Shown here piece after piece: positions 10,022-21,666 of a DNA stretch of 64,000 bases; the stretch's first letter is position 1, and each line of letters starts with the position of its first letter. Both the position numbers and the translations under genes were made by a program. The stretch covers positions 1-64,000 of the forward strand of contig NZ_JAAWVT010000009.1 of assembly GCF_012271785.1 (NCBI RefSeq), given 5' to 3'. The DNA is from Paeniglutamicibacter terrestris (GTDB taxonomy: Bacteria; Actinomycetota; Actinomycetes; Actinomycetales; Micrococcaceae). Below the pieces are notes generated by a model. The model saw nothing but the letters and a program-made list of their open reading frames with translations. It searched no databases and was not told the origin of the DNA.

Positions 10022-11107
10022 ATGAGCATCGGCACCGAAGACGCGACCCAGAAGTTGGGTTCGATCCCTGCCATGAGCCAAGCCGAGACGATGAAGCTCA
10101 GTATCATCGATACCACCGCGGTGCTGGAGCCGATCAAGGATCCTGTTCCCGAGCTGACGCCCGACCCGGCGCAGCTGCCCATCGGCAAGCACCTGGCTGG
10201 CTACCTCCAACATCTGGCCGTCGAGCGTGGCATGGCCAAAAACACCGTTAGTGCCTACCGGCGGGACCTTTATCGCTACGCCGCGTTCCTCGGTGCTCAG
10301 TCGGTTCACGAACCGGCCCAGGTGAACCTGGGCAACCTGACCGCCTTCGCCCAGGCCGTGCGTGATGGAGCCGATGGCGGTGCCCCACTGAGTGCTCGCT
10401 CCGCGGCACGCACCATCGTTGCCGTGCGTGGACTGCATAAGTTCTGGGAGCTTGAGGGCATCGCCCCGACCAACCCGGCCGTTGACTTACACCCACCGTC
10501 GCCCGGGCGCCGACTGCCCAAAGCCATTTCGGTGGCCGATGTGAGCGCCATCCTGGATTCGGTATCCACCGAAACCTCCGCCGGCCTGCGTGACAAGGCG
10601 ATCCTCGAATTCCTGTATTCCACCGGGGCCCGAATCTCCGAGGCCGTGGGACTCGATGTTGATGACCTGCACCTGGAACGCCCGGCCAGCGGCCCGGCCG
10701 TGGTGCGACTCTTCGGCAAGGGCTCTAAGGAACGCATCGTCCCGTTGGGTTCCTACGCCATCAATGCGCTGAACGCCTACCTGGTGCGCGGGCGGCCCGA
10801 GCTGGTTGCCAAGGGCAAGGGCACGGCTGCCCTCTTCCTGAACCAGCGGGGCGGGCGGCTCTCGCGCCAATCGGCGTGGTCGGTGCTCACCAAGGCCGCC
10901 GAACGCGCGGGCATCGAACAAGATGTCTCACCGCACACCCTGCGGCACTCCTTCGCTACCCACCTCTTGGAGGGGGGAGCCGATGTGCGTGTGGTCCAGG
11001 AGCTGTTGGGCCACGCCTCGGTGACCACCACTCAGGTTTATACCTTGGTCACCGCCGACACGTTGCGGGAAATCTACGCCGCGGCGCACCCCCGCGCCCA
11101 CCACTAG
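10022..11107 (+). CDS. xerD: Site-specific tyrosine recombinase XerD
   Basis: 361 residues. The N-terminal SAM-like core-binding domain ([20 protein letters not shown]) and the catalytic domain are complete. The catalytic set is Arg in [13 protein letters not shown], Lys in [10 protein letters not shown], His305/Arg308 in [12 protein letters not shown], His331 in [13 protein letters not shown] and the nucleophile Tyr340. XerD with XerC resolves chromosome dimers at dif in the FtsK pathway. The product begins about 45 residues before the usual XerD start; ATG 10073 is an alternative. AGGAC, 11 bases upstream, serves ATG 10022. The conserved housekeeping run stops here and resumes with parA at 31.1 kb. 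Confidence 0.93.
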
Positions 11108-11124: not shown

Positions 11125-11682
11125 ATGCCGCACCCACCGCTTGGCACCCCGATCCGGGTGGTCTTGTGTCTGCCGGTGGTACACGGCACCGACGGCACCC
11201 AGATTCTACTGGGGCTGAAACAACGCGGGTTCGGTGCGGGCAAGATGGTGGCACCGGGTGGGAAGATCGAAGCGGGGGAGAATCGCGAGCAGGCGGCAGT
11301 CCGCGAACTATTCGAAGAGACCGCGCTGATAGCCGATGCCGATGAGTTACTGCCAGCGGCCCGGGTCTACTTCCGCTTCCCCGCGAACCCGTCCGCGGAC
11401 ATGGACTGCACGATCTACCTCACCACCGCCTTCAGCGGTCTACCGGCGGCCTCATCCGAGCTGATCCCGCAGTGGTATCCGGCGGATAATTTGCCGTTTC
11501 AACGAATGTGGGACGATTCGGCACTCTGGCTGACTCGAATTCTGGCCGGCGAACGGTTCGACGCCCTGGTGCGCCTTGCCGCCGACAACGAATCGGTAAA
11601 CCACTTTGCCACCATCAACTGGCCGGGAACAAAGATTCCCGCCATCGATGCAACCGAAGCCGACTTCCCGGACATTACCTAG
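11125..11682 (+). CDS. NUDIX hydrolase, MutT/8-oxo-dGTP type
   Basis: 185 residues from ATG 11125, 17 bases after xerD. The NUDIX box is a perfect match: GGKIEAGENREQAAVRELFEET (shown here in parts: GKIEAGE, then NREQAAV, then RELFEET). The N-terminal strand VLCLPVVHGTDGTQILLGLKQR and the KMVAPGGK segment resemble MTH1-like 8-oxo-dGTP diphosphatases, so nucleotide-pool sanitising is likely, though other NTP substrates are possible. It may be the last gene of the xerD transcript or the first of the accessory island. The last codons contain the reverse complement of GGTAATGTCCGG, a 12-mer that also occurs before the caspase gene. Confidence 0.85.
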   Translation: MPHPPLGTPIRVVLCLPVVHGTDGTQILLGLKQRGFGAGKMVAPGGKIEAGENREQAAVRELFEETALIADADELLPAARVYFRFPANPSADMDCTIYLTTAFSGLPAASSELIPQWYPADNLPFQRMWDDSALWLTRILAGERFDALVRLAADNESVNHFATINWPGTKIPAIDATEADFPDIT

Positions 11683-11693
11683 GCATCAGGCAG

Positions 11694-11709
11694 CACCCGA
11701 AACCGGGTG
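11694..11709 (+). other. Short hairpin before the sigma factor gene
   Basis: CACCCG and CGGGTG form a 6-bp stem with a four-base loop, AAAC. It lies between the NUDIX stop (11682) and the sigma factor ATG (11730). No T-run follows, so it is a weak terminator at best or a leader structure. Confidence 0.4.
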
Positions 11710-11729
11710 TCTTGAGGGGGAGGGAACCC

Positions 11730-12248
11730 ATGGGTGCGAGAACCGCGTTGCATGTGGAAGAACTGCACCGGCAGTACTCCCAGCGCGTTTACGGCTACGT
11801 CTACCGGCGGACCACCGATGTGCAATTAGCCCAGCAGATCACCAATGACGTCTTCCGCATCGCCTGGCAGCACCAGAAGGAACCTTCCGAGGATGTGTTG
11901 CCGTGGTTGCTGGTGACGGCACGGAACCTGGTCGCCAATGAATTCCGGGCCACGCGCCGCCAACGCAGCCTCGTTGAGAAGCTTGGTGGTGCCGAACTGG
12001 CCCGCCGCCCGGAGCCGGAGGATGACCCCGGTTCAGGGGTCCGCGACGTTCTGAACACCTTGCGCCCGCAGGAGCGCGAAATCCTCATGCTCGCCTACTG
12101 GGATTTGCTGAGCATCCTCGAAATCTCCTCGATCCTTGAATGCTCGCCCGATTCGGCCAAGTCACGGCTGTTCAGGGCGCGCAAGGCCTTCTCCAAGAAG
12201 GCGCCGAACCAGATGTTGAAGGGTGGAACCTCAGATGGACAACATTGA
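11730..12248 (+). CDS. ECF-like RNA polymerase sigma factor
   Basis: 172 residues from ATG 11730, preceded by GGGGGAGGGA at a spacing of five. Region 2 is recognisable (YVYRRTTDVQLAQQITNDVF and the downstream WLLVTARNLVANEFR, the core-binding and -10 helices) and region 4 is clear (LRPQEREILMLAYWDLLS, then SPDSAKSRLFRARKAF as the -35 recognition helix-turn-helix). There is no region 1 or 3, so this is group 4 (extracytoplasmic function). It overlaps the next gene, whose product has one membrane segment; such pairs are usually a sigma factor and its membrane-bound regulator. The target promoters cannot be told from the sequence. Confidence 0.85.
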   Translation: MGARTALHVEELHRQYSQRVYGYVYRRTTDVQLAQQITNDVFRIAWQHQKEPSEDVLPWLLVTARNLVANEFRATRRQRSLVEKLGGAELARRPEPEDDPGSGVRDVLNTLRPQEREILMLAYWDLLSILEISSILECSPDSAKSRLFRARKAFSKKAPNQMLKGGTSDGQH

Positions 12249-13593
12249 ACAGCTCCTTCGAGACGCCGACCCCCGCATGCACCGGAAATCCGCCGGCCCC
12301 CTTCCCCTGAACCTGGATGAACCCGGCCCGGTCTTTGTCCAGCAGCCGGTGCGCCAAGCATCGAGGCCGCGGCGCTCTTGGGGACCGGTGGCTCTGGGCG
12401 CGATGGTCACCGCCTCCGCGGTGGCCGCGGTGATTTTCTGGTCGCCGTGGAACGCTCCGCTGCCCGAGCCCGGCCCGGCGATCACACCCACCCCGAGCCC
12501 CACGGCGCCCTCGGAAAGCAGCTCGGCGAATCCTACGACGCCACCGGAGTCTGGTGCACTGCCCAACGGGTTGTTCCCCGCCTACGACGGCGTGCACTTT
12601 ACTGACGATCAGGCGTGCCGCGCCCTGTCTTTGCCCCAGATCCAGCTCGCCGACGCCCAAGGAAAGCTCAGCACACCGGGCTACGACACGAGGGCCTTCT
12701 CCCTCATCGGCTGTGTTGAGGGTTTTGCCGCCTTCACGCCCAGTGAGCAGTTTAAGCTCGAAGAGCGGGTCCAGGACACCTCCGGCGGCATGCTGATAGC
12801 AAAGTGGGATCCGGAGGCCGAGCACTGGGTCAGCTCGCCGTCAAACCTCACGGGAGAGGGTGTGGAGGTGTACCAGGAATACCTCAGCTGGCCCCTGCTG
12901 CGTGGCTATACCTATGAAGCGGATCAAACCCCGGAACAACGCATGGACTTGGCCGTCAAGGAAACGGGAATCGACCCAGAGATCGTTGCGGAGCTTTTCG
13001 GTCCCAACGTGCCGTCATGGATGGAAACCGAGACCAGCACCGAACGTGTTCCCTATGGCAATTCGGTCCTCGAAGTCACTCATCCGGTATGGACTCAGGT
13101 TGAGTCGATGAACGCCGCCGACGGCAAAGTATTAGACCCCGCAACCGTGAACCCGAAGGATGCGGCCACCTACCATTTAGGGTTCTTTGATGCGCACGGC
13201 AAGACGGTCTTCAACCTGGCCATTTTCACCGACGACCGACCCGGCGAGGACGGTACCGAAACCTGCAAGGACCCGGCGGGTACCTACACGCTGAACGGGC
13301 TGAGCCCCACCTCCGTCGTGGTTGATGAGGGGAAGCTGGCACTGGGGTTGATCACGCAGACCGACTACTTCGGCATTGAGCGCTCGGCGGTGTCGTTGGT
13401 TCCGGCCGACAGCGCCGCGCAGGGCAAGCTGTGCGACCTGGCCACGGCCTTCCACCTAAACGGGAAGTTGGTCCAATCCGATGCATGGACCGGCTACATG
13501 GGGTTCAAGGACGCGGCAGAACGCAACACCTACCTGGCCTCCAGCGAGTACCTTCGGGCACAGGACGTGGCAGCATCACTGAAGCTCAAGTAG
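12235..13593 (+). CDS. Single-pass membrane protein, probable partner of the sigma factor
   Basis: About 452 residues from ATG 12235 (GTG 12223 is possible); the start overlaps the sigma factor gene by 14 bases. A short cytoplasmic segment (residues 1-49, basic near its end) precedes a transmembrane helix at about 50-69 (PVALGAMVTASAVAAVIFW). A Pro/Ser/Thr linker follows, then a large extracytoplasmic region without a family I recognise. The overlap and topology suggest that it senses something outside and controls the sigma factor, but the cytoplasmic part is too short and divergent to identify a zinc-finger anti-sigma fold (no HxxxCxxC). Anti-sigma function is therefore inference. Confidence 0.7.
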   Translation: MDNIEQLLRDADPRMHRKSAGPLPLNLDEPGPVFVQQPVRQASRPRRSWGPVALGAMVTASAVAAVIFWSPWNAPLPEPGPAITPTPSPTAPSESSSANPTTPPESGALPNGLFPAYDGVHFTDDQACRALSLPQIQLADAQGKLSTPGYDTRAFSLIGCVEGFAAFTPSEQFKLEERVQDTSGGMLIAKWDPEAEHWVSSPSNLTGEGVEVYQEYLSWPLLRGYTYEADQTPEQRMDLAVKETGIDPEIVAELFGPNVPSWMETETSTERVPYGNSVLEVTHPVWTQVESMNAADGKVLDPATVNPKDAATYHLGFFDAHGKTVFNLAIFTDDRPGEDGTETCKDPAGTYTLNGLSPTSVVVDEGKLALGLITQTDYFGIERSAVSLVPADSAAQGKLCDLATAFHLNGKLVQSDAWTGYMGFKDAAERNTYLASSEYLRAQDVAASLKLK

Positions 13594-13602
13594 CTGGAGC
13601 TG

Positions 13603-13648
13603 CAGCGTTACCGTCCGGGGACACCGGAAACACCGGGCGGTAACGCTG
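13603..13648 (+). other. Long hairpin between the sigma operon and the caspase gene
   Basis: CAGCGTTACCG (13603-13613) pairs with CGGTAACGCTG (13638-13648), 11 bp, extended inward by a G-T pair and four more base pairs. It begins ten bases after the stop of the membrane protein gene. There is no T-run, so it may be a transcript end or, because its arms contain inverted CGGTAACG, a protein-binding site. Confidence 0.55.
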
Positions 13649-13670
13649 CGGTAATGTCCGGCGGTCCATG
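13639..13670 (+). promoter_or_regulatory. Candidate SARP-type repeats upstream of the caspase gene
   Basis: GGTAACG (13639) and GGTAATG (13650) are direct repeats with an 11-bp period; a looser GGTCCATG follows at 13663. They resemble the four-copy array at 18288-18327. No good -10 hexamer sits at the matching distance (CATGCT at 13667 or TATCCA at 13683), so this site is weaker than the other. Confidence 0.4.
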
Positions 13671-13715
13671 CTGGTGGAGGGATATCCATAACACGGCACC
13701 TGACAGGAGCGCATC

Positions 13716-15773
13716 ATGGTTTTGCTGACGGCCCGGGAACCAAACCCCGAGAAAGACGGCGCGGCACGAGGCGTCCTTCCGGCAGGAATCGATCCACAGG
13801 CACTCAAGCGGCACCTGATCAACCTGTCGGACGGACGCTTTTCCAGCGGCGGGCAAATGCGCACCACCCCGGAGGACGTCCAAGCGATCTTCGCACGCCA
13901 CCTGCCCGAATTTGTTGCCGCCAACGGCGGACGCGACGTCCCGCTGCTCTTCTGGGCCCATGGCGGGCTGGTGGATGAAAACTCGGGAATTCTCGGTGCA
14001 GCGCGCCAAATCCCATGGTGGCTGGCCAACGGGGTCTATCCGATCTTTTTCATCTGGGAAACCGGGCTCTTTGATGCCATCGCCAGCCTGCTCGGAGCCG
14101 CCCCGCGCGAGGCGCAGCTCGCTGTCCCGGCCGAGCGGGGCTTCCTGCAGGACGCCTGGAACAAGGCCTTGGAACTGCTTGCCCGCCCCGTGGGACCCAA
14201 AATCTGGGGTCAGATGAAACTAAGCGCCGCTCAATCGGTGGCCGACGACGGCGGTGCGCTGTATGTGGCCCGGGAACTGGCCGAATACGTTCAGAAAAAC
14301 CCACAGGCCCTTCAGCTGCATGCGGCCGGGCACTCGGCTGGCGCGATCTTCCATTCACACTTCCTGCCGGCCTACGCCGGGCTGGATGCTGGGCAAGGCT
14401 TCTCCACGCTGAACCTGCTAGCTCCGGCCATCACCACCGAAAACTTCAAGCAACGGCTGCTGCCGCTGCTGGGAACCGCCAACGGGGTAGATCACCTGGG
14501 CATGTTCTCCATGAAGACGGAGCTGGAAGAGGAAGATGACGTCATTGGTCTCTACCGGCGCTCGCTGCTCTGCCTGATTCGGGCCTCGTTGGAGGTCGAG
14601 CCGAACACCCCGATTCTGGGTCTGGCGGAATCGGTAGCCTCCGACGAATCGCTGACCCAGCTCTTCGCCTCGGCGGGGGCCGATGCGACCTGGTCGATAT
14701 CCGCAGGCGGACCCAAGTCAGGACGCAGCGCCGCGCGGTCTCACGGTTCCTTCGATGATGACCCCGATACCATGACCAGCGTGCTGTGCCGGGTACTGGG
14801 CCGCGAGGACGTCATCGGCTACAGCGGCGCCCGGCCGACCCCGGAACCGGCTGCCGCCGTGAACCCCGCGCCGTCAATCGCGGTACCGGTCCTCGGCCAC
14901 GTCGCCAGCTCAGGCCCAAGTGGGGAGCGCTACGCCCTCTGCGTGGGCATCAACGACTTCCAAAACCTACCGCGCGGCTCGTGGCTTAACGGCTGCGTTA
15001 ACGACGCAAAAGACTTTGCCGAGGTCTTGGGAGCTGGGTACGGGTTCGCCGACCACCAGATCGAGGTACTCACCAACGCCGCCGCCACCAAGGCAGCGGT
15101 CATGGACAAACTGAGAGAGGCCATGGACCGGGCGGCAAGCGACGGACTGAAGCACCTGGTCTTTACCTTCTCTAGCCATGGAACCCAGATCCCGGATACC
15201 TCGGGTGATGAAGCAGATCAGTCGGACGAGGCCTTTGCCACCTATGACCTGAACCAAGCCGGGGACCAATGGGACCCTGCCACCCTGATCTCCGATGACG
15301 AACTCCATGACCTCATTTCCCGGGCGCCGCAAGGGATGCTGGTAGAGGTGGTCCTGGACACCTGCCACAGCGGAAGCGGACTCAAGGCGCTGGACCTACT
15401 GCCCGGGCGCCGCCCACGGTTCCTGCCCCCACCCACACCGATCGGCCTGGAGCGCACGGCGACGGCGGATCCACGGGCCTTCCGCGACCTGGTGTCACGC
15501 TCGGGCGCCGGGGCTCGCCCGGTGCTGCTGGCAGGCTGCCGCTCGGACCAGACCTCCGCCGATGCGGTATTTGAGGGGCGTTATAACGGCGCGTTCACCT
15601 ACTACCTGCTGCAGGAGCTGCGCACCGACCCCACCCGCACCCGCAAGGTGATAATGGCCGCCGTCATCAAGTCACTGACCAAGGGCCGCTTTGACCAGCG
15701 CGCGCAACTGGAAGGCCCGGTCGCGGCCAAGAATTCGCCGTGGGGCAGCGCCTTCGCGCCCCACTCGGGGTGA
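13716..15773 (+). CDS. Caspase-like peptidase (C14) fused to an alpha/beta-hydrolase-like domain
   Basis: 685 residues, no signal peptide or membrane segment. Residues about 70-290 look like an alpha/beta hydrolase: the strand VPLLFWAHGGLVDENSG and the nucleophile elbow GHSAG with Ser207. A Pro/Gly linker (about 330-400) leads to a metacaspase-type p20 domain starting at ERYALCVGINDF. Its dyad is complete: His488 in TFSSHGTQIPD and Cys550 in LDTCHSGSG, followed by AGCRSDQTSAD and NGAFTYYLLQEL. Bacterial caspase homologues usually cut after basic residues and occur in signalling and cell-death or defence modules; the specificity and role here are unknown. GACAGGAGCGC precedes ATG 13716. The gluzincin gene begins three bases after the stop, so the two are coupled. 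Confidence 0.85.
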   Translation: MVLLTAREPNPEKDGAARGVLPAGIDPQALKRHLINLSDGRFSSGGQMRTTPEDVQAIFARHLPEFVAANGGRDVPLLFWAHGGLVDENSGILGAARQIPWWLANGVYPIFFIWETGLFDAIASLLGAAPREAQLAVPAERGFLQDAWNKALELLARPVGPKIWGQMKLSAAQSVADDGGALYVARELAEYVQKNPQALQLHAAGHSAGAIFHSHFLPAYAGLDAGQGFSTLNLLAPAITTENFKQRLLPLLGTANGVDHLGMFSMKTELEEEDDVIGLYRRSLLCLIRASLEVEPNTPILGLAESVASDESLTQLFASAGADATWSISAGGPKSGRSAARSHGSFDDDPDTMTSVLCRVLGREDVIGYSGARPTPEPAAAVNPAPSIAVPVLGHVASSGPSGERYALCVGINDFQNLPRGSWLNGCVNDAKDFAEVLGAGYGFADHQIEVLTNAAATKAAVMDKLREAMDRAASDGLKHLVFTFSSHGTQIPDTSGDEADQSDEAFATYDLNQAGDQWDPATLISDDELHDLISRAPQGMLVEVVLDTCHSGSGLKALDLLPGRRPRFLPPPTPIGLERTATADPRAFRDLVSRSGAGARPVLLAGCRSDQTSADAVFEGRYNGAFTYYLLQELRTDPTRTRKVIMAAVIKSLTKGRFDQRAQLEGPVAAKNSPWGSAFAPHSG

Positions 15774-15776
15774 ACG

Positions 15777-17402
15777 ATGTTAGTGCCGACACCGCATCGC
15801 GCCGGGGATCTGAGCTCACTGACGGTGCTGGCCCAGGGACCGCACTTGATAGATGCCGCGGATCAGCTAATGACCCACATCCTTCGTGTCCCCAGCGAAC
15901 GGTTGCTCACCGGTCCGTTGGGCGCACGCCTAGAGGTGGTGGTGCTTGGTCCGCGCGGGCGCCGGGAAAACCAAGTCTTGGCGGAGGGCGACTGGGGAGC
16001 GGAAGACATCACCCCGCCGGCGGATCCCGCTGACCTGCCCACGGACCGTCGATTCTTGGCCCAGCAGGCCTACGCGGTGGCGGCACACACGCTGGCGTCT
16101 TTCGAGCGGGCGCTGGGGCGTCGGATGGGCTGGGCCGGCGGGCGCAGGCTCACGCTGTACGCCAATGATCCGATCGACTACCGCAACACCGGCTACACCC
16201 CAGAAGACTGTTCCATCAGGTTCGGGATGATTCACGATTCGCGGCACCGGAACAAACTCCCGCTGGTGCTCTACCGGGACCTGGTGGCGCACGAGGTCAC
16301 GCATGCAGTGATCGACGGGTACCGGCCGCGCTGGGGTGATGCCCACGCCGGGGCCGATCAGTTGGCCCTGCACGAGGCGCTCGCCGACCTCGTGGCCATG
16401 CTGGGGGTCTTCACCGCCGAATCCGTGGTGGAAAAAATCATCACCGTGGAACTTGAGACACCCGGCGCAACCCTGGAATCCATCGATTCGACGCTGCTGG
16501 CCTCGGGACTCTTTCGCTTCGCCGACAACCTTTTCAGTCACGACAAGGCAGCACGCGATCCGCTGAGCGGGGAGCTGCCGGCGAACTGGCGCCAAGATAC
16601 GGACCCGCATCGGCGTGCCGCCGGGGTCATTCGCGCGGTGCTGGGAACCGTCCTGCGTTTGTGGCGGGCGGAGCTGGGGCGCCCGGGCCGCCGCTCAAGT
16701 GTTCACCAGGTGGCAGCGGCCGGTGCTCGCATTGGCGAGCGGGTGCTGAACATGCTGCTGCGTGGTCTGGCCTACATGGCCCCGGTCGATGTGGGATGGG
16801 AGGATTTGCTGCGCGGGATCCTGGCCGCTGATGCGGTGGTGGTCCCGCAGGATGGGCGCAACTACCGCGGCGCGCTGCGCTCCTGCTTTGCCGAGGTCGG
16901 TATCCTAGCCGGGCCGCCCCATGCCCTAGATGGGCTGACCAAGTTGCGGGAGCTGAACTACCCGGTCCGGCTCTCCGCCCTAGGCTCGGACCCCGACGAG
17001 GTGCTGCGTTTCATTTGGGATAACCCGACATTATTGGATGCGGCCAAACTGGACCCGGCGGCAAAGATCACCATCGACAGGGTGCGCCCCAGCCTCAGGA
17101 TCAGCCCCGACGGGTTTGCCGTCGCCGAAATCGGGGCTTCCTTTGTCCAAGAACTGCGCCTGTCCCCGGCCGAGGCCACGAAGTTGGGCCTGCGCACCAC
17201 GGCGGCGGTGATCGTGCGCGGCGGTGGCCTACTGCGCTTTGACGAGGGCGGACGTCTGTGTTTTGCCGCGTTGAAACCGGTTCTGGATGTGCGGCGGCAA
17301 CAGGAATTGATCGACGGGGTCGATGCCGCACGCGCCGCCGCCCAACGGATGGGTGAGTCGATGTTCCACCCGCCGGCCGCAGCGCTCCCTCCCACATCTT
17401 GA
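15777..17402 (+). CDS. Gluzincin (thermolysin-like) metalloprotease, cytoplasmic by sequence
   Basis: 541 residues. Zinc motif HEVTH (His172, Glu173, His176) within YRDLVAHEVTHAVIDGY, and a likely third ligand Glu200 in LHEALADLVAM, 28 residues after the first His, as in the M4/thermolysin arrangement. Preceding SIRFGMIHDS is compatible with the substrate edge strand. Unlike secreted M4 enzymes there is no signal peptide and no typical propeptide. The C-terminal 200 residues are unassigned, with a possible beta-rich domain. The ATG follows the caspase stop by three bases, with only GGGGTGA as a ribosome site, so translation probably depends on the upstream gene. Its stop overlaps a TTG codon in the frame of the next gene. 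Confidence 0.75.
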   Translation: MLVPTPHRAGDLSSLTVLAQGPHLIDAADQLMTHILRVPSERLLTGPLGARLEVVVLGPRGRRENQVLAEGDWGAEDITPPADPADLPTDRRFLAQQAYAVAAHTLASFERALGRRMGWAGGRRLTLYANDPIDYRNTGYTPEDCSIRFGMIHDSRHRNKLPLVLYRDLVAHEVTHAVIDGYRPRWGDAHAGADQLALHEALADLVAMLGVFTAESVVEKIITVELETPGATLESIDSTLLASGLFRFADNLFSHDKAARDPLSGELPANWRQDTDPHRRAAGVIRAVLGTVLRLWRAELGRPGRRSSVHQVAAAGARIGERVLNMLLRGLAYMAPVDVGWEDLLRGILAADAVVVPQDGRNYRGALRSCFAEVGILAGPPHALDGLTKLRELNYPVRLSALGSDPDEVLRFIWDNPTLLDAAKLDPAAKITIDRVRPSLRISPDGFAVAEIGASFVQELRLSPAEATKLGLRTTAAVIVRGGGLLRFDEGGRLCFAALKPVLDVRRQQELIDGVDAARAAAQRMGESMFHPPAAALPPTS

Positions 17403-17485
17403 CCCCCGCCCCGCTAGGGTGCACGATTCGAATGGTAGCTAAATCATCCAGACGGCAACGGACGGGCGAAGGGGGACTGCCCACG

Positions 17486-18241
17486 ATGAGCATTGAGGGC
17501 GGGCTACGGCAATCCCACTATGGGCTGTGCCTGATGCCATCATGGGGGCTGTGGCGCAACGGATGCGAGATCGAGGTTTCCCTCCGCCAGCAGCGACTTT
17601 TAGCTGTTTTGGCGGTCCAAGGCTGCTGTCGGCGTGAGCTGGTGGCGGGAATGTTGTGGCCAGAGTCGCCCGAAAGCTCCGCCCTGGATAACCTGCGGGT
17701 GAGCATCCACCGTGTGACCAGCGGCCTACCGGATTTGATTCGCGCGGATCGGCATGCGCTCGAACTCTCCGAATGGGTCCGGGTAGACCTGCACCGGGAA
17801 TGGGAGAAGCTCGAGGGATCTGCCGTCGCGGGGGAGCGCAAGCACCCTGGCACCACTCCGCTGCTGTTGGGTTGGTACGAGGACTGGGTGCTCAACGAAC
17901 AGGTCCGTCTGTTACAGGCCCGAACCGCCTACTGGCGCCGGACCGCGGCACAGTGCCTGGCTCGCCACGACTACGCCGGCACCGTGGAATCGGCGGCCCA
18001 GGGGTTGTTCCTTGATGTGTTAGACGAAGCCGCGCTGGAAATTATGGTGGTGGCGCAGCTGGCCCTGGGCCAGTGCGTTTCGGCGTTGCAGGCGATCATC
18101 GGATTCCGCAGCAGGGCCCGGAAGGAGTTGGGCATAGCCGGTTCCCCAACGTTGGATCGACTCGAAACCCAGGTGCGCCGTGTCGCAAATGCTTCATACG
18201 CCGGGTTCTCCGTCGGCGGACCGGATCGGTGGAGCATCTAG
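17486..18241 (+). CDS. SARP-type transcriptional activator (winged helix plus BTAD)
   Basis: 251 residues from ATG 17486, chosen for GAAGGGGGA nine bases upstream; the frame is open back to 17399, and ATG 17432 is possible. Residues about 15-98 form an OmpR/PhoB-like winged helix (LRQQRLLAVLAVQ, ELVAGMLWPE, ALDNLRVSIHRV). Residues about 105-235 form a bacterial transcriptional activator domain, with the typical GWYEDWVLNEQ and ALQAIIGFRSRARKELGI segments. SARPs recruit RNA polymerase by binding direct heptamers with 11-bp periodicity near the -35 region. Such an array lies 47 bases downstream, before the next gene, which makes that gene and possibly the caspase gene its likely targets. Confidence 0.85.
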   Translation: MSIEGGLRQSHYGLCLMPSWGLWRNGCEIEVSLRQQRLLAVLAVQGCCRRELVAGMLWPESPESSALDNLRVSIHRVTSGLPDLIRADRHALELSEWVRVDLHREWEKLEGSAVAGERKHPGTTPLLLGWYEDWVLNEQVRLLQARTAYWRRTAAQCLARHDYAGTVESAAQGLFLDVLDEAALEIMVVAQLALGQCVSALQAIIGFRSRARKELGIAGSPTLDRLETQVRRVANASYAGFSVGGPDRWSI

Positions 18242-18287
18242 AAGCGCTCGCGGATGGTGTGCATCGCCGACACTCCACGCCCCGGCA

Positions 18288-18343
18288 GGTCATGGAGCGG
18301 TAATGGGCAGGTAATTTCCCGGTCACGGGTGCCCGCCTACGCT
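18288..18343 (+). promoter_or_regulatory. SARP-type promoter: four 11-bp phased heptamers and a -10
   Basis: GGTCATG (18288), GGTAATG (18299), GGTAATT (18310) and GGTCACG (18321) start exactly 11 bp apart. Ten bases after the last one is TACGCT (18338-18343), a fair -10. No separate -35 hexamer is seen. This matches the known layout of SARP-activated promoters. Transcription would start near 18350 and leave a leader of about 93 bases before ATG 18443. Confidence 0.65.
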
Positions 18344-18442
18344 GAGGCATCACACGGCGGACGGGTGGGGGCCACCAGGGGCAAGAGGGCGGTTTTGACA
18401 CCGTGGGCGTCTGTTGTGGTGAGTCCACAAGGGGAGAAAACC

Positions 18443-19327
18443 ATGGAGAACATCCAGCAGGGCACCGATGTCGTTTTTGAGCGGCTCGTGGCCGCCCGGC
18501 GCGAGCAAGTTGTTGCCCTCCAGAAGGCGCAGTCCAAGGAGCTGGCGGACCTCGAGACCCGCGGGCAGAGCAGACTGGCCAGCCTGAAGAAAACGTTGCC
18601 CAAGGAACTCGCGGCCTACCTCACCAAGCAGGAAGAGGCCGAGTCCAAGGTAGCAGCGGCAGCGCTCAAGGACAGTGAAACCGCCGCCGCTCGGCTGGCG
18701 GAGGCGGAGGCGAGTGAGTCCACAGCGCTCCAACTGGTGCTCGGCAACGGGCCGGCGGCCGCTGCCGTGGGCTGGCTCAGCCCGTATTACGGAACGCTGC
18801 ACGGTTCCGACGGATCGGTGTACTGGCAGGGCTACAACCCCGGCAACATCGACGCATCGTGTTACGCCAACGGAGCGGGCTCGGGCATCTTCGGCACCGG
18901 CGTCGGTTCGTTCACGGTGTACATGGATTGGTGGTTCACCTTTAATGCACCGGAGAACCGCAACTACGCGCAAACGGTCTATGTGCCGTTTAACGGCTTC
19001 TACATCGTGCGTGCCGATGACGGTTGGTTCGATTCGAAGCAGGCCAGCGTCGACATTTCGCTCTCGGCCACCGGCTACCAGTACAACTACAAGCCCACGG
19101 GAAATGCCAACGTGCTCTCGGTGGGCAACGACAACATCAACGTCAACGACCGCTTCGACGGCTGGCGCACCATGTACTACTCCGACCTCTTGGGAGCGGA
19201 CCGCGCCTACCTGCTGGTGAGCGCCAAGCTATCGGTGTACGCGCGCGGCGGCGGCTCCACCGCACAGCTGGACTTCGCCAGCGGAAACGCCAACTACTTG
19301 GGCGTGCCACTGGTCTACGTCAGCTGA
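18443..19327 (+). CDS. Unrecognised coiled-coil plus beta-rich protein
   Basis: 294 residues from ATG 18443, with AAGGGGAG six bases upstream; the frame is open from 18254 but the earlier part lies across the promoter. Residues about 10-97 are Ala/Glu/Lys/Leu-rich and predicted by eye to be a coiled coil (VAARREQVVALQKAQSKELA). From about residue 105 the protein changes to Gly, Asn, Tyr and Trp-rich alternating strands (GWLSPYYGTLHGSDGSVYWQ). There is a single cysteine, and no signal peptide or membrane helix. I do not recognise the family. The strong ribosome site and the dedicated promoter suggest high induced expression; a structural, scaffold or substrate role beside the proteases is conceivable only. 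Confidence 0.75.
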   Translation: MENIQQGTDVVFERLVAARREQVVALQKAQSKELADLETRGQSRLASLKKTLPKELAAYLTKQEEAESKVAAAALKDSETAAARLAEAEASESTALQLVLGNGPAAAAVGWLSPYYGTLHGSDGSVYWQGYNPGNIDASCYANGAGSGIFGTGVGSFTVYMDWWFTFNAPENRNYAQTVYVPFNGFYIVRADDGWFDSKQASVDISLSATGYQYNYKPTGNANVLSVGNDNINVNDRFDGWRTMYYSDLLGADRAYLLVSAKLSVYARGGGSTAQLDFASGNANYLGVPLVYVS

Positions 19328-19377
19328 AGCACCATTCCACGTGGTGCTGTGCCGGGTCACGTGCCCGGCACAGCACC
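19328..19377 (+). other. Two competing hairpins before the astacin gene
   Basis: GGTGCTGTGCCGGG (19343-19356) and CCCGGCACAGCACC (19364-19377) form a perfect 14-bp stem with loop TCACGTG. The left arm also pairs upstream: AGCACCA (19328-19334) with TGGTGCT (19342-19348), 7 bp. The two structures exclude each other. There is no T-run, so this could be an intercistronic attenuator or an mRNA-stabilising element. Confidence 0.5.
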
Positions 19378-19424
19378 GCACCCACCACCTCATCCCTGCA
19401 CCACCGGCTCGTGAAGGAACCCCC

Positions 19425-20450
19425 ATGAAATACAACAACCAGCCGCTCTGCGTCCCGCGGAACCCGGCACCACGTCAACTGCCCCCGGGCATGCCCATCG
19501 AACGCGACCGCCTCCTGCGACTGTTGGCCAATGTGTGGGTCAACGGCACGGAACTGCACTACTTCCTCATCGATGGGGCGGAACCGCAGCGCAAGGCCGT
19601 GCGTGACGCCTTCGCCGAATGGAAGGCGCTGCCGCTGGGCCTGAACTTCACCGAGACCACTACCCGCGCGGCCTCCGAGGTAAGGATTTCCTTCGACGCG
19701 GCCGACGGTTCCTGGTCCTATGTGGGCCGCGACGTGCTCGGGATTCCCACCACTGAGGCGACCATGAACTTCGGCTGGGATTTGACCGACGACTACGGGC
19801 ATACCACCGCGCTACACGAGATCGGGCACACCCTGGGGTTGCCGCACGAGCACCAGAACCCGTTCTCCGGCATCGTATGGGACGTGGAGAAGGTCTACGC
19901 GTATTTCACCGGATCCCCGAACTTCTGGACCCGCGCGCAGACCGAGTCGAATGTTTTGCAAAAGTTCTCCACCACCGAGGTGGATGGCTCGGCCTGGGAC
20001 CCGGACTCCGTGATGGAGTATTGGTTCCCGGCCGGACTGATCCTGGAGCCCGCGCAGTACAGCAGCGGGCTGATGCCCGCCGGTGGGCTGTCGGCACCGG
20101 ACCGCGAATGGGCCAAGAAGTTCTATCCGGGTTCGACTCCGGGGCCCGAGGTCCTGGTTCCCTTCGTCTCCCGGCCGCTGAGCCTGGGCCCGGGCGCGCA
20201 GGCCGACTTCGTTTTGGAACCGGAGGCCTCACGGCAATACACGATCGCCACCTTCGGCGCCTCGGATGTGGTGCTGGTGCTCTTCGAAGACGACGGGGGC
20301 ACGCTGCGCTACCTGGGCGGGGACGATGATAGCGGCACCGGGCTAAACGCCAGGCTACGTGTGCGGTTGCTGGCCGGGCGGCGCTACGTGGTGCGGCTGC
20401 GTCTGTACTGGGCCGGTGGAAGTGGGGACACCTCGGTCATGTATTGGTGA
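19425..20450 (+). CDS. Astacin-like zinc metalloprotease with C-terminal PPC-like domain
   Basis: 341 residues from ATG 19425, with GAAGGAAC upstream. The extended metzincin motif is intact: HEIGHTLGLPHEH gives His131, Glu132, His135 and His141, and the Met-turn is SVMEY with Met197, 56 residues later. This places it in the M12A/astacin-like group. Residues about 255-341 resemble a bacterial pre-peptidase C-terminal domain (YTIATFGASDVVLVLFED, then GGDDDSGTGLNARLRVRLLAG). Most astacins are secreted with signal and pro-peptides; neither is visible here, so the enzyme is cytoplasmic or leaves by another route. It is the last gene of the island; a bidirectional terminator follows. Confidence 0.85.
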   Translation: MKYNNQPLCVPRNPAPRQLPPGMPIERDRLLRLLANVWVNGTELHYFLIDGAEPQRKAVRDAFAEWKALPLGLNFTETTTRAASEVRISFDAADGSWSYVGRDVLGIPTTEATMNFGWDLTDDYGHTTALHEIGHTLGLPHEHQNPFSGIVWDVEKVYAYFTGSPNFWTRAQTESNVLQKFSTTEVDGSAWDPDSVMEYWFPAGLILEPAQYSSGLMPAGGLSAPDREWAKKFYPGSTPGPEVLVPFVSRPLSLGPGAQADFVLEPEASRQYTIATFGASDVVLVLFEDDGGTLRYLGGDDDSGTGLNARLRVRLLAGRRYVVRLRLYWAGGSGDTSVMYW

Positions 20451-20475
20451 TCCGGATTGGAGATCACCGGGCATA

Positions 20476-20523
20476 AAAATGGCCGCTTGGCCAGAGACAA
20501 CTCTCCCGCCAAGCGACCATTTT
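20476..20523. terminator. Bidirectional Rho-independent terminator
   Basis: AAAATGGCCGCTTGGC and GCCAAGCGACCATTTT form a 16-bp stem with one mismatch. The A-tract on one side and the T-tract on the other make it work in both directions, ending the astacin gene (+) and prpC (-). Confidence 0.85.
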
Positions 20524-20529
20524 CTGCGC

Positions 20530-21666
20530 TTACAGCGCGCGCTGCTCCGGGCCGTTGTAGGCGGAGAGCGGGCGGATCAACGCGTTGGACGCACGCTGTT
20601 CCATGATATGAGCGGTCCAGCCGGTGATGCGAGCGGCGATAAAGATCGGGGTGAACATCTCCGTATCGAAGCCCATCAGGTGGTACGTGGGACCGGCCGG
20701 GTAGTCGAGGTTCGGCTTGATGGCCTTGGCCTCGTCCATCGCGGCTTCCAGACCGTCGTAGAGTCCCAGCATTTCGCCGCGACCATAGTGCTCGATCATC
20801 TTATCCAGTGCGGCCTTCATGGTCGGCACGCGCGAGTCCCCGTGCTTGTACACGCGGTGACCGAAGCCCATGACCTTCTTCTTGGCGGCCAGCGCTTCCT
20901 CCATCCAGGTTTTGGCGCGTGCCGCGGCATCCTCACGAGATTCGTTTTTGTCGATCCCGATTTCGTGGAAGGTGTGCATGACTGCCTCGTTGGCGCCGCC
21001 GTGCAGCGGGCCTTTGAGGGCGCCGATGGCTCCGGTGACGGCCGAGTGCAAATCCGAGAGCGTGGAGGTGATCACGCGTGCGGTGAAGGTGGACGCGTTG
21101 AAGGAGTGCTCCGCGTAGAGCACCATCGAGACGCGGAAGGCATCAACCACTTCCGGTGCTGCCTCCTCGCCGAAGGTCATCCACAAGAAGTTCTGCGAAT
21201 AGTCCAAGTCTTCGCGCGGTTCCACCACTTCAAGACCGCGCCGGCGGCGCTGGTCGTAGGCGACCACGGCCGGGAACGCGGCAAAGAGTTCCTTGGCCTT
21301 GGACAACTCGGCGGCCGGGGAGGACTCCTCGGCCAGGGCGTGGTTGGCACCAATGACCGAAACGGCGGTGCGTCCCACATCCATCGGGTGGCAATTAGTC
21401 GGCAGCAGATCGATGGCTGCCTTGACGTTCGGTGCTAGGGCGCGCCCGGCACGTTCGGCCTTCACGAATTCTGCCAGTTCGCCCGCGGTGGGCAATTCGC
21501 CGGTCCAGAGCAGCAGAGCTACCTCTTCGAAGCTCTTGGCCGCGGCCAGATCCTGAACGGGGTAACCGCGATACAACAGGGAATTGGTGTCCGGGTTGAC
21601 CTTGGAGACGGCCGTGTAGTCGACGACGACTCCGGCCAGACCCTTCTTGATTTCAGTTTCAGTCAT
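20530..21666 (-). CDS. prpC: 2-methylcitrate synthase (citrate synthase family)
   Basis: 378 residues from ATG 21666 (GTG 21669 precedes it), with CAGGAG upstream. The citrate-synthase active-site segments are present: GPLHGGANEAVM, VMGFGHRVYKHGDSR and the Asp in MGFDTEMFTPIF. It condenses propionyl-CoA with oxaloacetate. Assignment to the methylcitrate rather than the citric acid cycle rests on its position as third gene of gntR-prpD-prpB-prpC. Length (about 375) fits short PrpC-type enzymes. The gap to prpB is 17 bases. Confidence 0.93.
   Translation of the reverse strand: MTETEIKKGLAGVVVDYTAVSKVNPDTNSLLYRGYPVQDLAAAKSFEEVALLLWTGELPTAGELAEFVKAERAGRALAPNVKAAIDLLPTNCHPMDVGRTAVSVIGANHALAEESSPAAELSKAKELFAAFPAVVAYDQRRRRGLEVVEPREDLDYSQNFLWMTFGEEAAPEVVDAFRVSMVLYAEHSFNASTFTARVITSTLSDLHSAVTGAIGALKGPLHGGANEAVMHTFHEIGIDKNESREDAAARAKTWMEEALAAKKKVMGFGHRVYKHGDSRVPTMKAALDKMIEHYGRGEMLGLYDGLEAAMDEAKAIKPNLDYPAGPTYHLMGFDTEMFTPIFIAARITGWTAHIMEQRASNALIRPLSAYNGPEQRAL

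What the first reader, a model, noticed from the sequence alone, without database searches (positions are those of the whole stretch)
18288..18343. Four heptamers with exact 11-bp phasing next to a SARP gene
GGTCATG, GGTAATG, GGTAATT and GGTCACG begin at 18288, 18299, 18310 and 18321, and a -10-like TACGCT follows ten bases after the last. SARP activators are known to bind direct heptamers of 11-bp period just upstream of the -10. A SARP-type protein is encoded 47 bases upstream. The regulator and its probable site therefore lie together, and the site drives a gene of unknown function. The heptamer is not one I know from described SARPs.
Basis: partly seen in the sequence, partly recalled or inferred. 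Interest (0 to 1): 0.85.

Follow-up and report, generated by a model that had tools for sequence, protein, structure and literature searches.

The report
SARP activator with its own operators
Next to a gene for a small SARP-type transcription activator lie repeated 7-base sites, spaced one DNA turn apart in front of a promoter, and comparison with related bacteria indicates that the activator uses such sites to switch on its own caspase-peptidase operon and a neighbouring gene of unknown function.

Summary
The array alone is not rare in one sequence; comparison carries the case. (1) Array and hexamer align gap-free in six same-genus genomes; shorter versions stand before P0002 relatives in other genera. 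(2) A second site of the same geometry (13639/13650, CATGCT at 13667) lies before the caspase-peptidase-SARP operon, so autoregulation is likely; exact GGTAAYN5GGTAAY occurs only at these two sites in the 4.34-Mb genome. (3) Of 60 SARP loci from other genera of the family, 24 carry three-unit RTAAY boxes at 11 bp; every other period from 7 to 24 except the harmonic 22 gives 0 or 1. A hexamer lies exactly 10 bp on in 22 of 29 deduplicated boxes (7 of 9 flank clusters). (4) Boxes follow SARP presence: 36 of 67 SARP-positive, 10 of 228 SARP-negative genomes. The geometry equals AfsR at afsS. The core also equals published MtrA and GlnR boxes, the serious rival; boxes from SARP-lacking genomes lack the hexamer (0 of 10). 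One genome (G190) keeps a box without the SARP. Binding is untested.

The parts
17486..18241 (+). SARP-type activator gene (P0001, 251 aa)
   Evidence: BTAD E 1.3e-4; BTAD in 35 of 35 members of family alignment A2; A2 profile matches AfsR 8hvr, E 1.8e-11, over profile positions 14-237 of 251
18288..18294 (+). operator unit 1, GGTCATG
   Evidence: TCAT invariant in 6 of 6 compared promoters
18299..18305 (+). operator unit 2, GGTAATG
   Evidence: GGTAA invariant in 6 of 6
18310..18316 (+). operator unit 3, GGTAATT
   Evidence: TAA invariant in 6 of 6
18321..18327 (+). operator unit 4, GGTCACG
   Evidence: reads GRTMAYG in 5 and AATAATG in 1 of the 6 compared
18338..18343 (+). -10 hexamer TACGCT
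   Evidence: 10 bp after unit 4; TAC and the final T invariant in 6 of 6
18350..18422 (+). conserved leader hairpin that begins at the expected start of transcription
   Evidence: 28 of the 30 consensus pairs; 7 pairs with changes on both sides among six sequences
18443..19327 (+). P0002, target gene, function unknown
   Evidence: no Pfam family above cut-off and no NCBIfam family; relatives 38-99% identical
19425..20450 (+). P0004, probable second gene of the target unit: astacin/matrixin-like, SCO6992 (AbsR1) relative
13639..13645 (+). second operator, unit 1, GGTAACG
13650..13656 (+). second operator, unit 2, GGTAATG
13667..13672 (+). -10-like CATGCT, 10 bp after unit 2
   Evidence: five of its six bases (C, A, T, C, T) invariant in 7 of 7 aligned sequences
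13716..15773 (+). caspase-fold (C14) protein, probable first gene of the operon that ends with the SARP
   Evidence: Pfam Peptidase_C14 E 3.1e-21; NCBIfam caspase_w_EACC1 E 4e-8, below its cut-off
15777..17402 (+). P0003, M4-like peptidase candidate (HEVTH), probable second gene of the operon
   Evidence: weak Pfam M4 match, E 0.025, below cut-off

Best explanation
The repeats at 18288-18327 are the operator of a SARP-activated promoter. The product of 17486-18241, or a near paralogue, would bind as side-by-side protomers, one per 11-bp unit. The last two units would occupy about -40 to -19, so that the protein replaces a missing -35 element and holds sigma region 4 while RNA polymerase uses TACGCT as -10; transcription would start near 18350 and read P0002 and P0004. 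A second, two-unit operator at 13639-13656 with CATGCT would let the same SARP activate its own operon (caspase - M4-like peptidase - SARP), giving a positive feedback switch with a very small regulon. Shown here: sequence, geometry, conservation, linkage to SARP genes. Inferred: binding, activation, start site, operon structure, feedback. The signal that starts the switch is unknown.
For: Gap-free conservation of four units plus -10 in 6 compared P0002 promoters. P0002 relatives: box read by eye in 9 of 11 named loci, not in L011 or L013. Second site with the same 10-bp distance at the caspase operon, found in 9 of 9 genus genomes that have the caspase gene (G074, first unit AATAATG, by eye). 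Exact GGTAAYN5GGTAAY occurs at only 2 places in the own genome. 60 SARP loci outside the genus: 24 hold boxes at period 11 (31 boxes; two perfect RTAAY units and a third with at most one mismatch); periods 7-24 otherwise 0, except 16 (1) and the harmonic 22 (4). Without assumed motif, TAAC triples at period 11 in 14 of 60 loci, 0 at the ten other periods tried. Hexamer YNNRMT at exactly +10 in 22 of 29 deduplicated boxes, background 2.2%, in 7 of 9 flank clusters. 36 of 67 SARP+ against 10 of 228 SARP- genomes hold a triple box, Fisher 6e-19 uncorrected for phylogeny; 33 of 67 triple matches lie under 6 kb from a SARP hit, about 0.5% of the sequence. P0004: box in front of the gene itself in G028, G145, G171, G200 (all SARP+), 0 of 7 loci in SARP-lacking genomes. 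Geometry equals AfsR at afsS (with +1 inferred).
Against: No binding or expression data. G190 keeps the caspase-operon box although no SARP relative or P0002 was found in that genome. 36 of 60 SARP loci show no box in the fetched stretch, mostly about 12 kb. Boxes of SARP+ genomes far from a detected SARP have the +10 hexamer in only 6 of the 12 looked at. SARP+ genomes G225, G258, G273 and G078 have no box directly before P0004. P0001 alone matches BTAD barely above cut-off, and no Pfam wHTH family matched any of 35 relatives. The core equals MtrA and GlnR boxes. Within the six-genome alignment the unit cores are only moderately more conserved than the rest of the units and spacers (mean 0.84 against 0.72; the 6 bases before the hexamer 0.81). 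A relaxed own-genome pattern (GRTMAY pairs) gives 34 matches against 6 for the reversed pattern, 30 of them elsewhere, and with two mismatches there is no excess (565 against 700). Genomes are related, so genome counts are not independent.
Confidence: 0.84

Rival explanations
1. The sites are bound by a global OmpR-family response regulator, MtrA or GlnR, and lie near SARP genes only because such genes are common targets of it.
For: Published boxes have the same core and period: MtrA GtnAcC-n5-GTnAcn, GlnR GTnAC-n6-GTnAC. In four SARP-lacking genomes of genus g22 triple boxes lie before genes that I recognise as ectA (from memory; Pfam of one of them, L230, gives GNAT plus class-III aminotransferase), and in G155 before a LysM-NlpC/P60 gene. 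Ectoine genes are MtrA/GlnR targets in Streptomyces (title of PMC13189361; ectABCD in a table passage of PMC10704036); cell-wall enzymes as MtrA targets are recalled. G190 keeps a box without the SARP.
Against: 0 of 10 triple boxes from SARP-lacking genomes have the hexamer at +10, against 22 of 29 SARP-linked ones (Fisher 3e-5; flanks not independent). 0 of 7 P0004 loci in SARP-lacking genomes have a box. Only 2 exact pair sites in the own genome, both at this locus, few for a global regulator. Linkage to SARP genes. The presence of mtrA and glnR in these genomes was not searched.
Confidence: 0.1
2. Both (compatible with the best explanation): the SARP activates through these sites and MtrA or GlnR competes for the same repeats.
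For: Identity of the core motifs; precedent of PhoP overlapping AfsR at the afsS direct repeats.
Against: No direct evidence; fixed +10 geometry and few sites are explained by the SARP alone.
Confidence: 0.2
3. Another SARP paralogue, not the adjacent one, is the binder.
For: G190 keeps the box without a relative of P0001 at E <= 1e-10; two Glutamicibacter-type genomes have their only detected SARP relative 17-18 kb from the P0002 box.
Against: P0001 itself is the only hit at E <= 1e-10 in the own genome.
Confidence: 0.1
4. Chance array without function.
For: In the single sequence, equal or better scores occur at periods 9, 12 and 15.
Against: Conservation, second site, family-wide linkage and +10 geometry.
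Confidence: 0.02

Closest known systems
AfsR and the afs box of the afsS promoter (Streptomyces coelicolor)
   Same: Two 11-bp direct repeats spanning -40 to -19 in front of a poor promoter (passages of PMC10936776). With +1 placed at 18350 (inference), units 3 and 4 here span exactly -40 to -30 and -29 to -19. The family profile aligns with the AfsR SARP domain.
   Different: Other repeat sequence (CGTT(T/C)ATCGNN for AfsR); four units at P0002; small SARP without NOD/TPR; targets are caspase/peptidase-type genes.
Small SARPs such as ActII-ORF4 and DnrI
   Same: DNA-binding domain plus BTAD; heptameric direct repeats, three at the ActII-ORF4 and DnrI sites (passages of PMC10972967).
   Different: The heptamer GRTMAYG differs from the TCGAG-type heptamers that I recall for these (not confirmed: TCGAG has 0 occurrences in that review); no antibiotic biosynthesis gene recognised among the ten window proteins scanned.
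PimR (SARP-LAL) operator
   Same: Three heptamers with 4-nt spacers.
   Different: Heptamer CGGCAAG (recalled); PimR has a large C-terminal half; its site does not overlap the -35 box.
MtrA and GlnR boxes
   Same: GTnAC core repeated at 11 bp.
   Different: Triple boxes found in SARP-lacking genomes lack the +10 hexamer (0 of 10); those regulators are global.

Membership tests
SARP regulator | C-terminal BTAD domain | tested here: met
   P0001 E 1.3e-4, 22.7 bits against cut-off 22.1; 35 of 35 members of A2, P0001 included
SARP regulator | N-terminal OmpR-type winged helix DNA-binding domain | tested here: inconclusive
   Family profile aligns with AfsR from position 14 to 237, a stretch that includes the N-terminal half, E 1.8e-11; but no Pfam wHTH match in 35 members and no structure prediction available
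SARP operator | direct repeats at 11 or 22 bp | tested here: met
SARP operator | 3' repeat at fixed short distance from the -10 (8 bp in the AfsR paper's wording) | tested here: met
   fixed at 10 bp after the 7-mer, that is 6 bp after an 11-nt unit, matching the afs-box coordinates
SARP operator | binding and activation by the cognate SARP | not testable with these tools
   needs EMSA, footprint, transcription assay
SARP regulator | situated in an antibiotic gene cluster (typical, not defining) | tested here: not met
   the ten window proteins scanned include caspase-fold, peptidase-like, sigma factor, integrase, citrate synthase and PEP mutase family proteins and none recognised as antibiotic biosynthesis; the rest of the window was not scanned
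MtrA/GlnR box | GTnAC-n6-GTnAC core | tested here: met
MtrA/GlnR box | presence independent of SARP genes, many sites per genome | tested here: not met
   exception G190
EACC1-caspase conflict system | 5' EACC1 gene paired with a caspase gene | tested here: inconclusive
   NCBIfam caspase_w_EACC1 E 4e-8 but 33 bits against cut-off 140; no NCBIfam family for the upstream gene 12223-13593 and only DUF6251 below cut-off in Pfam

The most novel reading that the evidence does not exclude
A whole subfamily of small SARPs in Micrococcaceae uses a private promoter code, three to four G(G/A)TAAY units at 11 bp plus a hexamer 10 bp on, that copies the DNA core read by MtrA and GlnR. The SARP could thus act as a local, self-amplifying switch for caspase- and peptidase-type effector genes, while MtrA or GlnR can veto or prime it through the same repeats.
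Probability: 0.25. Interest if true: 0.68.

Novelty: new member of a known kind. Interest (0 to 1): 0.55.

Why it matters
SARPs are known mostly from Streptomyces antibiotic clusters (recalled; the review seen, PMC10972967, deals with these). Here a SARP subfamily with a predictable operator is tied to caspase-fold and metalloprotease-fold genes in Micrococcaceae. The operator rule gives testable regulons in many genomes and a first handle on when a bacterial caspase operon is switched on.

Tried and rejected
Chance array: rejected by comparison. ECF sigma -35 reading (sigma gene at 11508): dropped from spacing alone, because GGTAAY to the hexamer is 11 bp, too short for a -35/-10 pair; not tested further. 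Rfam match for 13500-20600: none up to E 0.5. PDB match for P0002: none convincing (best E 0.41). PADLOC: of seven proteins only 13716-15773 matched, a generic 'caspase' model. Other GRTMAY pairs in the own genome (34 matches): the 30 loci given (L074-L103, two of them overlapping) showed one hexamer at +10, inside coding stretches (L099), so no further regulon member was recognised. The three g3 matches lie beside a terminator-like hairpin (read by eye) and were taken as false positives; the G089 match lies upstream of a glutaminase-like ORF (recognised by eye) and was left open.

Full report
Observation. The four heptamers and TACGCT are where stated. The distance from the last heptamer to the hexamer is 10 bases. 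The array considered alone is ordinary: in the 64-kb window a score as high occurs at one position at period 11, but also at 9 positions at period 12, 2 at 15 and 1 at 9 (periods 8-20).

Surroundings. Upstream, 13716-15773 (caspase fold), 15777-17402 (M4-like, HEVTH) and 17486-18241 (SARP) run in one direction with gaps of 3 and 83 bases and probably form one operon. Downstream lie P0002 (18443-19327, no family) and P0004 (19425-20450, astacin/matrixin-like, 423 bits to the NCBIfam model of AbsR1 but below its cut-off of 650). SCO6992 (AbsR1) has a metalloprotease domain but was reported to show no protease activity and strong beta-glucuronidase activity instead (PMC9705864, passages including the abstract). 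The genus is probably Paeniglutamicibacter: contigs of relatives G094 and G210 have the lengths of P. psychrophenolicus and P. antarcticus records.

The regulator. P0001 matches BTAD, as do 35 of 35 members of its family alignment. A profile of the 35 aligns over positions 14-237 with the AfsR SARP domain (8hvr, E 1.8e-11). No Pfam winged-helix family was hit and structure prediction was off, so the DNA-binding domain rests on that alignment.

Conservation. In six same-genus genomes (own included) the four units, spacers and hexamer align without gaps; TCAT of unit 1, GGTAA of unit 2, TAA of unit 3 and TAC...T of the hexamer are invariant. The contrast is moderate: mean majority frequency 0.84 in the unit cores, 0.72 in the rest of the repeats, 0.81 in the six bases before the hexamer, 0.94 in the hexamer. 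Two Glutamicibacter-type genomes have three units and TACGCT. In L007, L008, L009, L010 and L012 the P0002 promoter keeps two units with a TANNNT hexamer 9-10 bp on (by eye); L011 and L013 show none. L003, L004, L005, L006, L009, L010 and L012 have the contig lengths of G050, G210, G094, G051, G145, G078 and G028 and are not counted twice.

Second operator. GGTAACG-ctgc-GGTAATG, 10 bp, CATGCT lies at 13639-13672, 43 bases before the caspase gene. It is present in 9 of 9 genus genomes that have this gene, of 15 searched: 8 by pattern and G074, with AATAATG as first unit, by eye. The exact pair GGTAAYN5GGTAAY occurs at two places in the own genome, both here. Looser patterns are less telling: GRTMAY pairs give 34 matches against 6 reversed, and the pair with up to two mismatches shows no excess, 565 against 700.

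Link to SARPs in general. From 60 SARP hits outside the genus (loci L104-L163), 24 loci hold boxes at period 11 (two perfect RTAAY units and a third with at most one mismatch), 31 boxes; periods 7-24 otherwise give 0, except one at 16 and four at 22. Without any assumed motif, TAAC is the top 4-mer triple at period 11 (14 of 60 loci) and absent at the ten other periods tried. After deduplication 22 of 29 boxes have YNNRMT exactly 10 bp after the last heptamer, 3 at 9 bp; the remaining offsets 0-29 give 0-5; background 2.2%. The hexamer pattern was written after seeing examples; the offset scan is the control. The 31 boxes fall into 9 clusters of alignable flanks, 7 of them with the hexamer at +10. 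36 of the 60 loci show no box.

Genome level. 'SARP-positive' means a P0001 relative at E <= 1e-10. RTAAY triples: 67 matches, some overlapping, against 10 for the reversed pattern, counted from the table. 36 of 67 SARP-positive and 10 of 228 SARP-negative genomes have one (Fisher 6e-19; related genomes, so not a true probability); 33 of 67 matches lie within 6 kb of a SARP hit, about 0.5% of the SARP-positive genomes. The stricter pair-plus-hexamer pattern gave 24 matches against 2 reversed: 18 of 67 against 5 of 228 genomes. Of these five, three lie beside a terminator-like hairpin, one upstream of a glutaminase-like ORF, and one is G190 (by eye). Of 12 boxes looked at in SARP-positive genomes but far from a detected SARP, 6 have the +10 hexamer.

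Dependence on the SARP. P0004 occurs in 22 of 295 genomes. A box stands directly before it in G028, G145, G171 and G200, all SARP-positive; in G028, G145 and G171 a second, divergent box faces P0002. None of 7 P0004 loci in 6 SARP-lacking genomes has one. In eight SARP-positive genomes P0004 follows P0002 and has no box of its own. Against the reading, G225, G258, G273 and G078 (SARP-positive) have none directly before P0004, and G190 keeps the caspase box although SARP and P0002 were not found in its genome and are missing, with P0004, between the M4-like gene and a citrate-synthase-like gene; a P0004 relative of 63% lies elsewhere in G190, without a box.

Geometry and mechanism. AfsR binds two 11-bp repeats at -40 to -19 and engages sigma region 4 (PMC10936776, passages). 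A conserved leader hairpin in six genomes begins at 18350; 28 of the 30 consensus pairs belong to it, and 7 pairs have changes on both sides (0 of 500 shuffles reach this). If it marks +1 (inference), TACGCT spans -12 to -7 and the last two units span -40 to -30 and -29 to -19, the afs-box positions. I therefore infer SARP-type sigma adaptation, plus positive feedback through the second operator.

Rival. MtrA (GtnAcC-n5-GTnAcn, PMC13189361 passages) and GlnR (GTnAC-n6-GTnAC, PMC10704036 passages) read the same core. In SARP-lacking genomes triples stand before genes that I recognise as ectA and before a LysM-NlpC/P60 gene, which I take as probable MtrA/GlnR sites. None of the 10 boxes from SARP-lacking genomes has the hexamer at +10. 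The SARP reading is preferred, but overlap of the two codes is possible. Whether mtrA and glnR are present in these genomes was not searched.

Literature. The listings of searches show no paper that by title or abstract describes this operator for a SARP, or SARP operators in Micrococcaceae; only open-licence PMC papers are held. PMC10972967 and PMC7159879 were seen as passages.

Noticed in passing
window 18350-18422: Long conserved hairpin at the very 5' end of the predicted P0002 transcript, with compensatory changes in six genomes; folded alone the window leader has z -2.35, and two Glutamicibacter-type leaders of different sequence also fold into a long stem with weak z-scores (-0.82, -1.75). 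No Rfam family. Perhaps an mRNA stabiliser.
   Followed up: partly
L013 5001-5894: P0002 relative, 54% identical, in a Dyadobacter record (Bacteroidota, AT-rich flank), which suggests transfer between phyla or a contaminating contig.
   Followed up: no
L188: G190 lacks the SARP-P0002-P0004 segment between the M4-like gene and a citrate-synthase-like gene but keeps the caspase-operon box.
   Followed up: partly
L229-L232: Triple RTAAY boxes before genes recognised as ectA in four SARP-lacking genomes of one genus, probable GlnR/MtrA sites.
   Followed up: partly
L193, L194, L239, L240: Box with TCCACT at +10 before a PALP-fold enzyme gene (Pfam run on one of the four), far from any detected SARP.
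   Followed up: no
L189 5828-5860: In G200 the box stands before a P0004 relative on another contig than the SARP, an apparently unlinked regulon member.
   Followed up: yes
window 10022-11107 and 11508-13593: Tyrosine integrase gene, then an ECF-type sigma factor gene and a gene of unknown function; the latter two accompany the caspase operon in several relatives.
   Followed up: no
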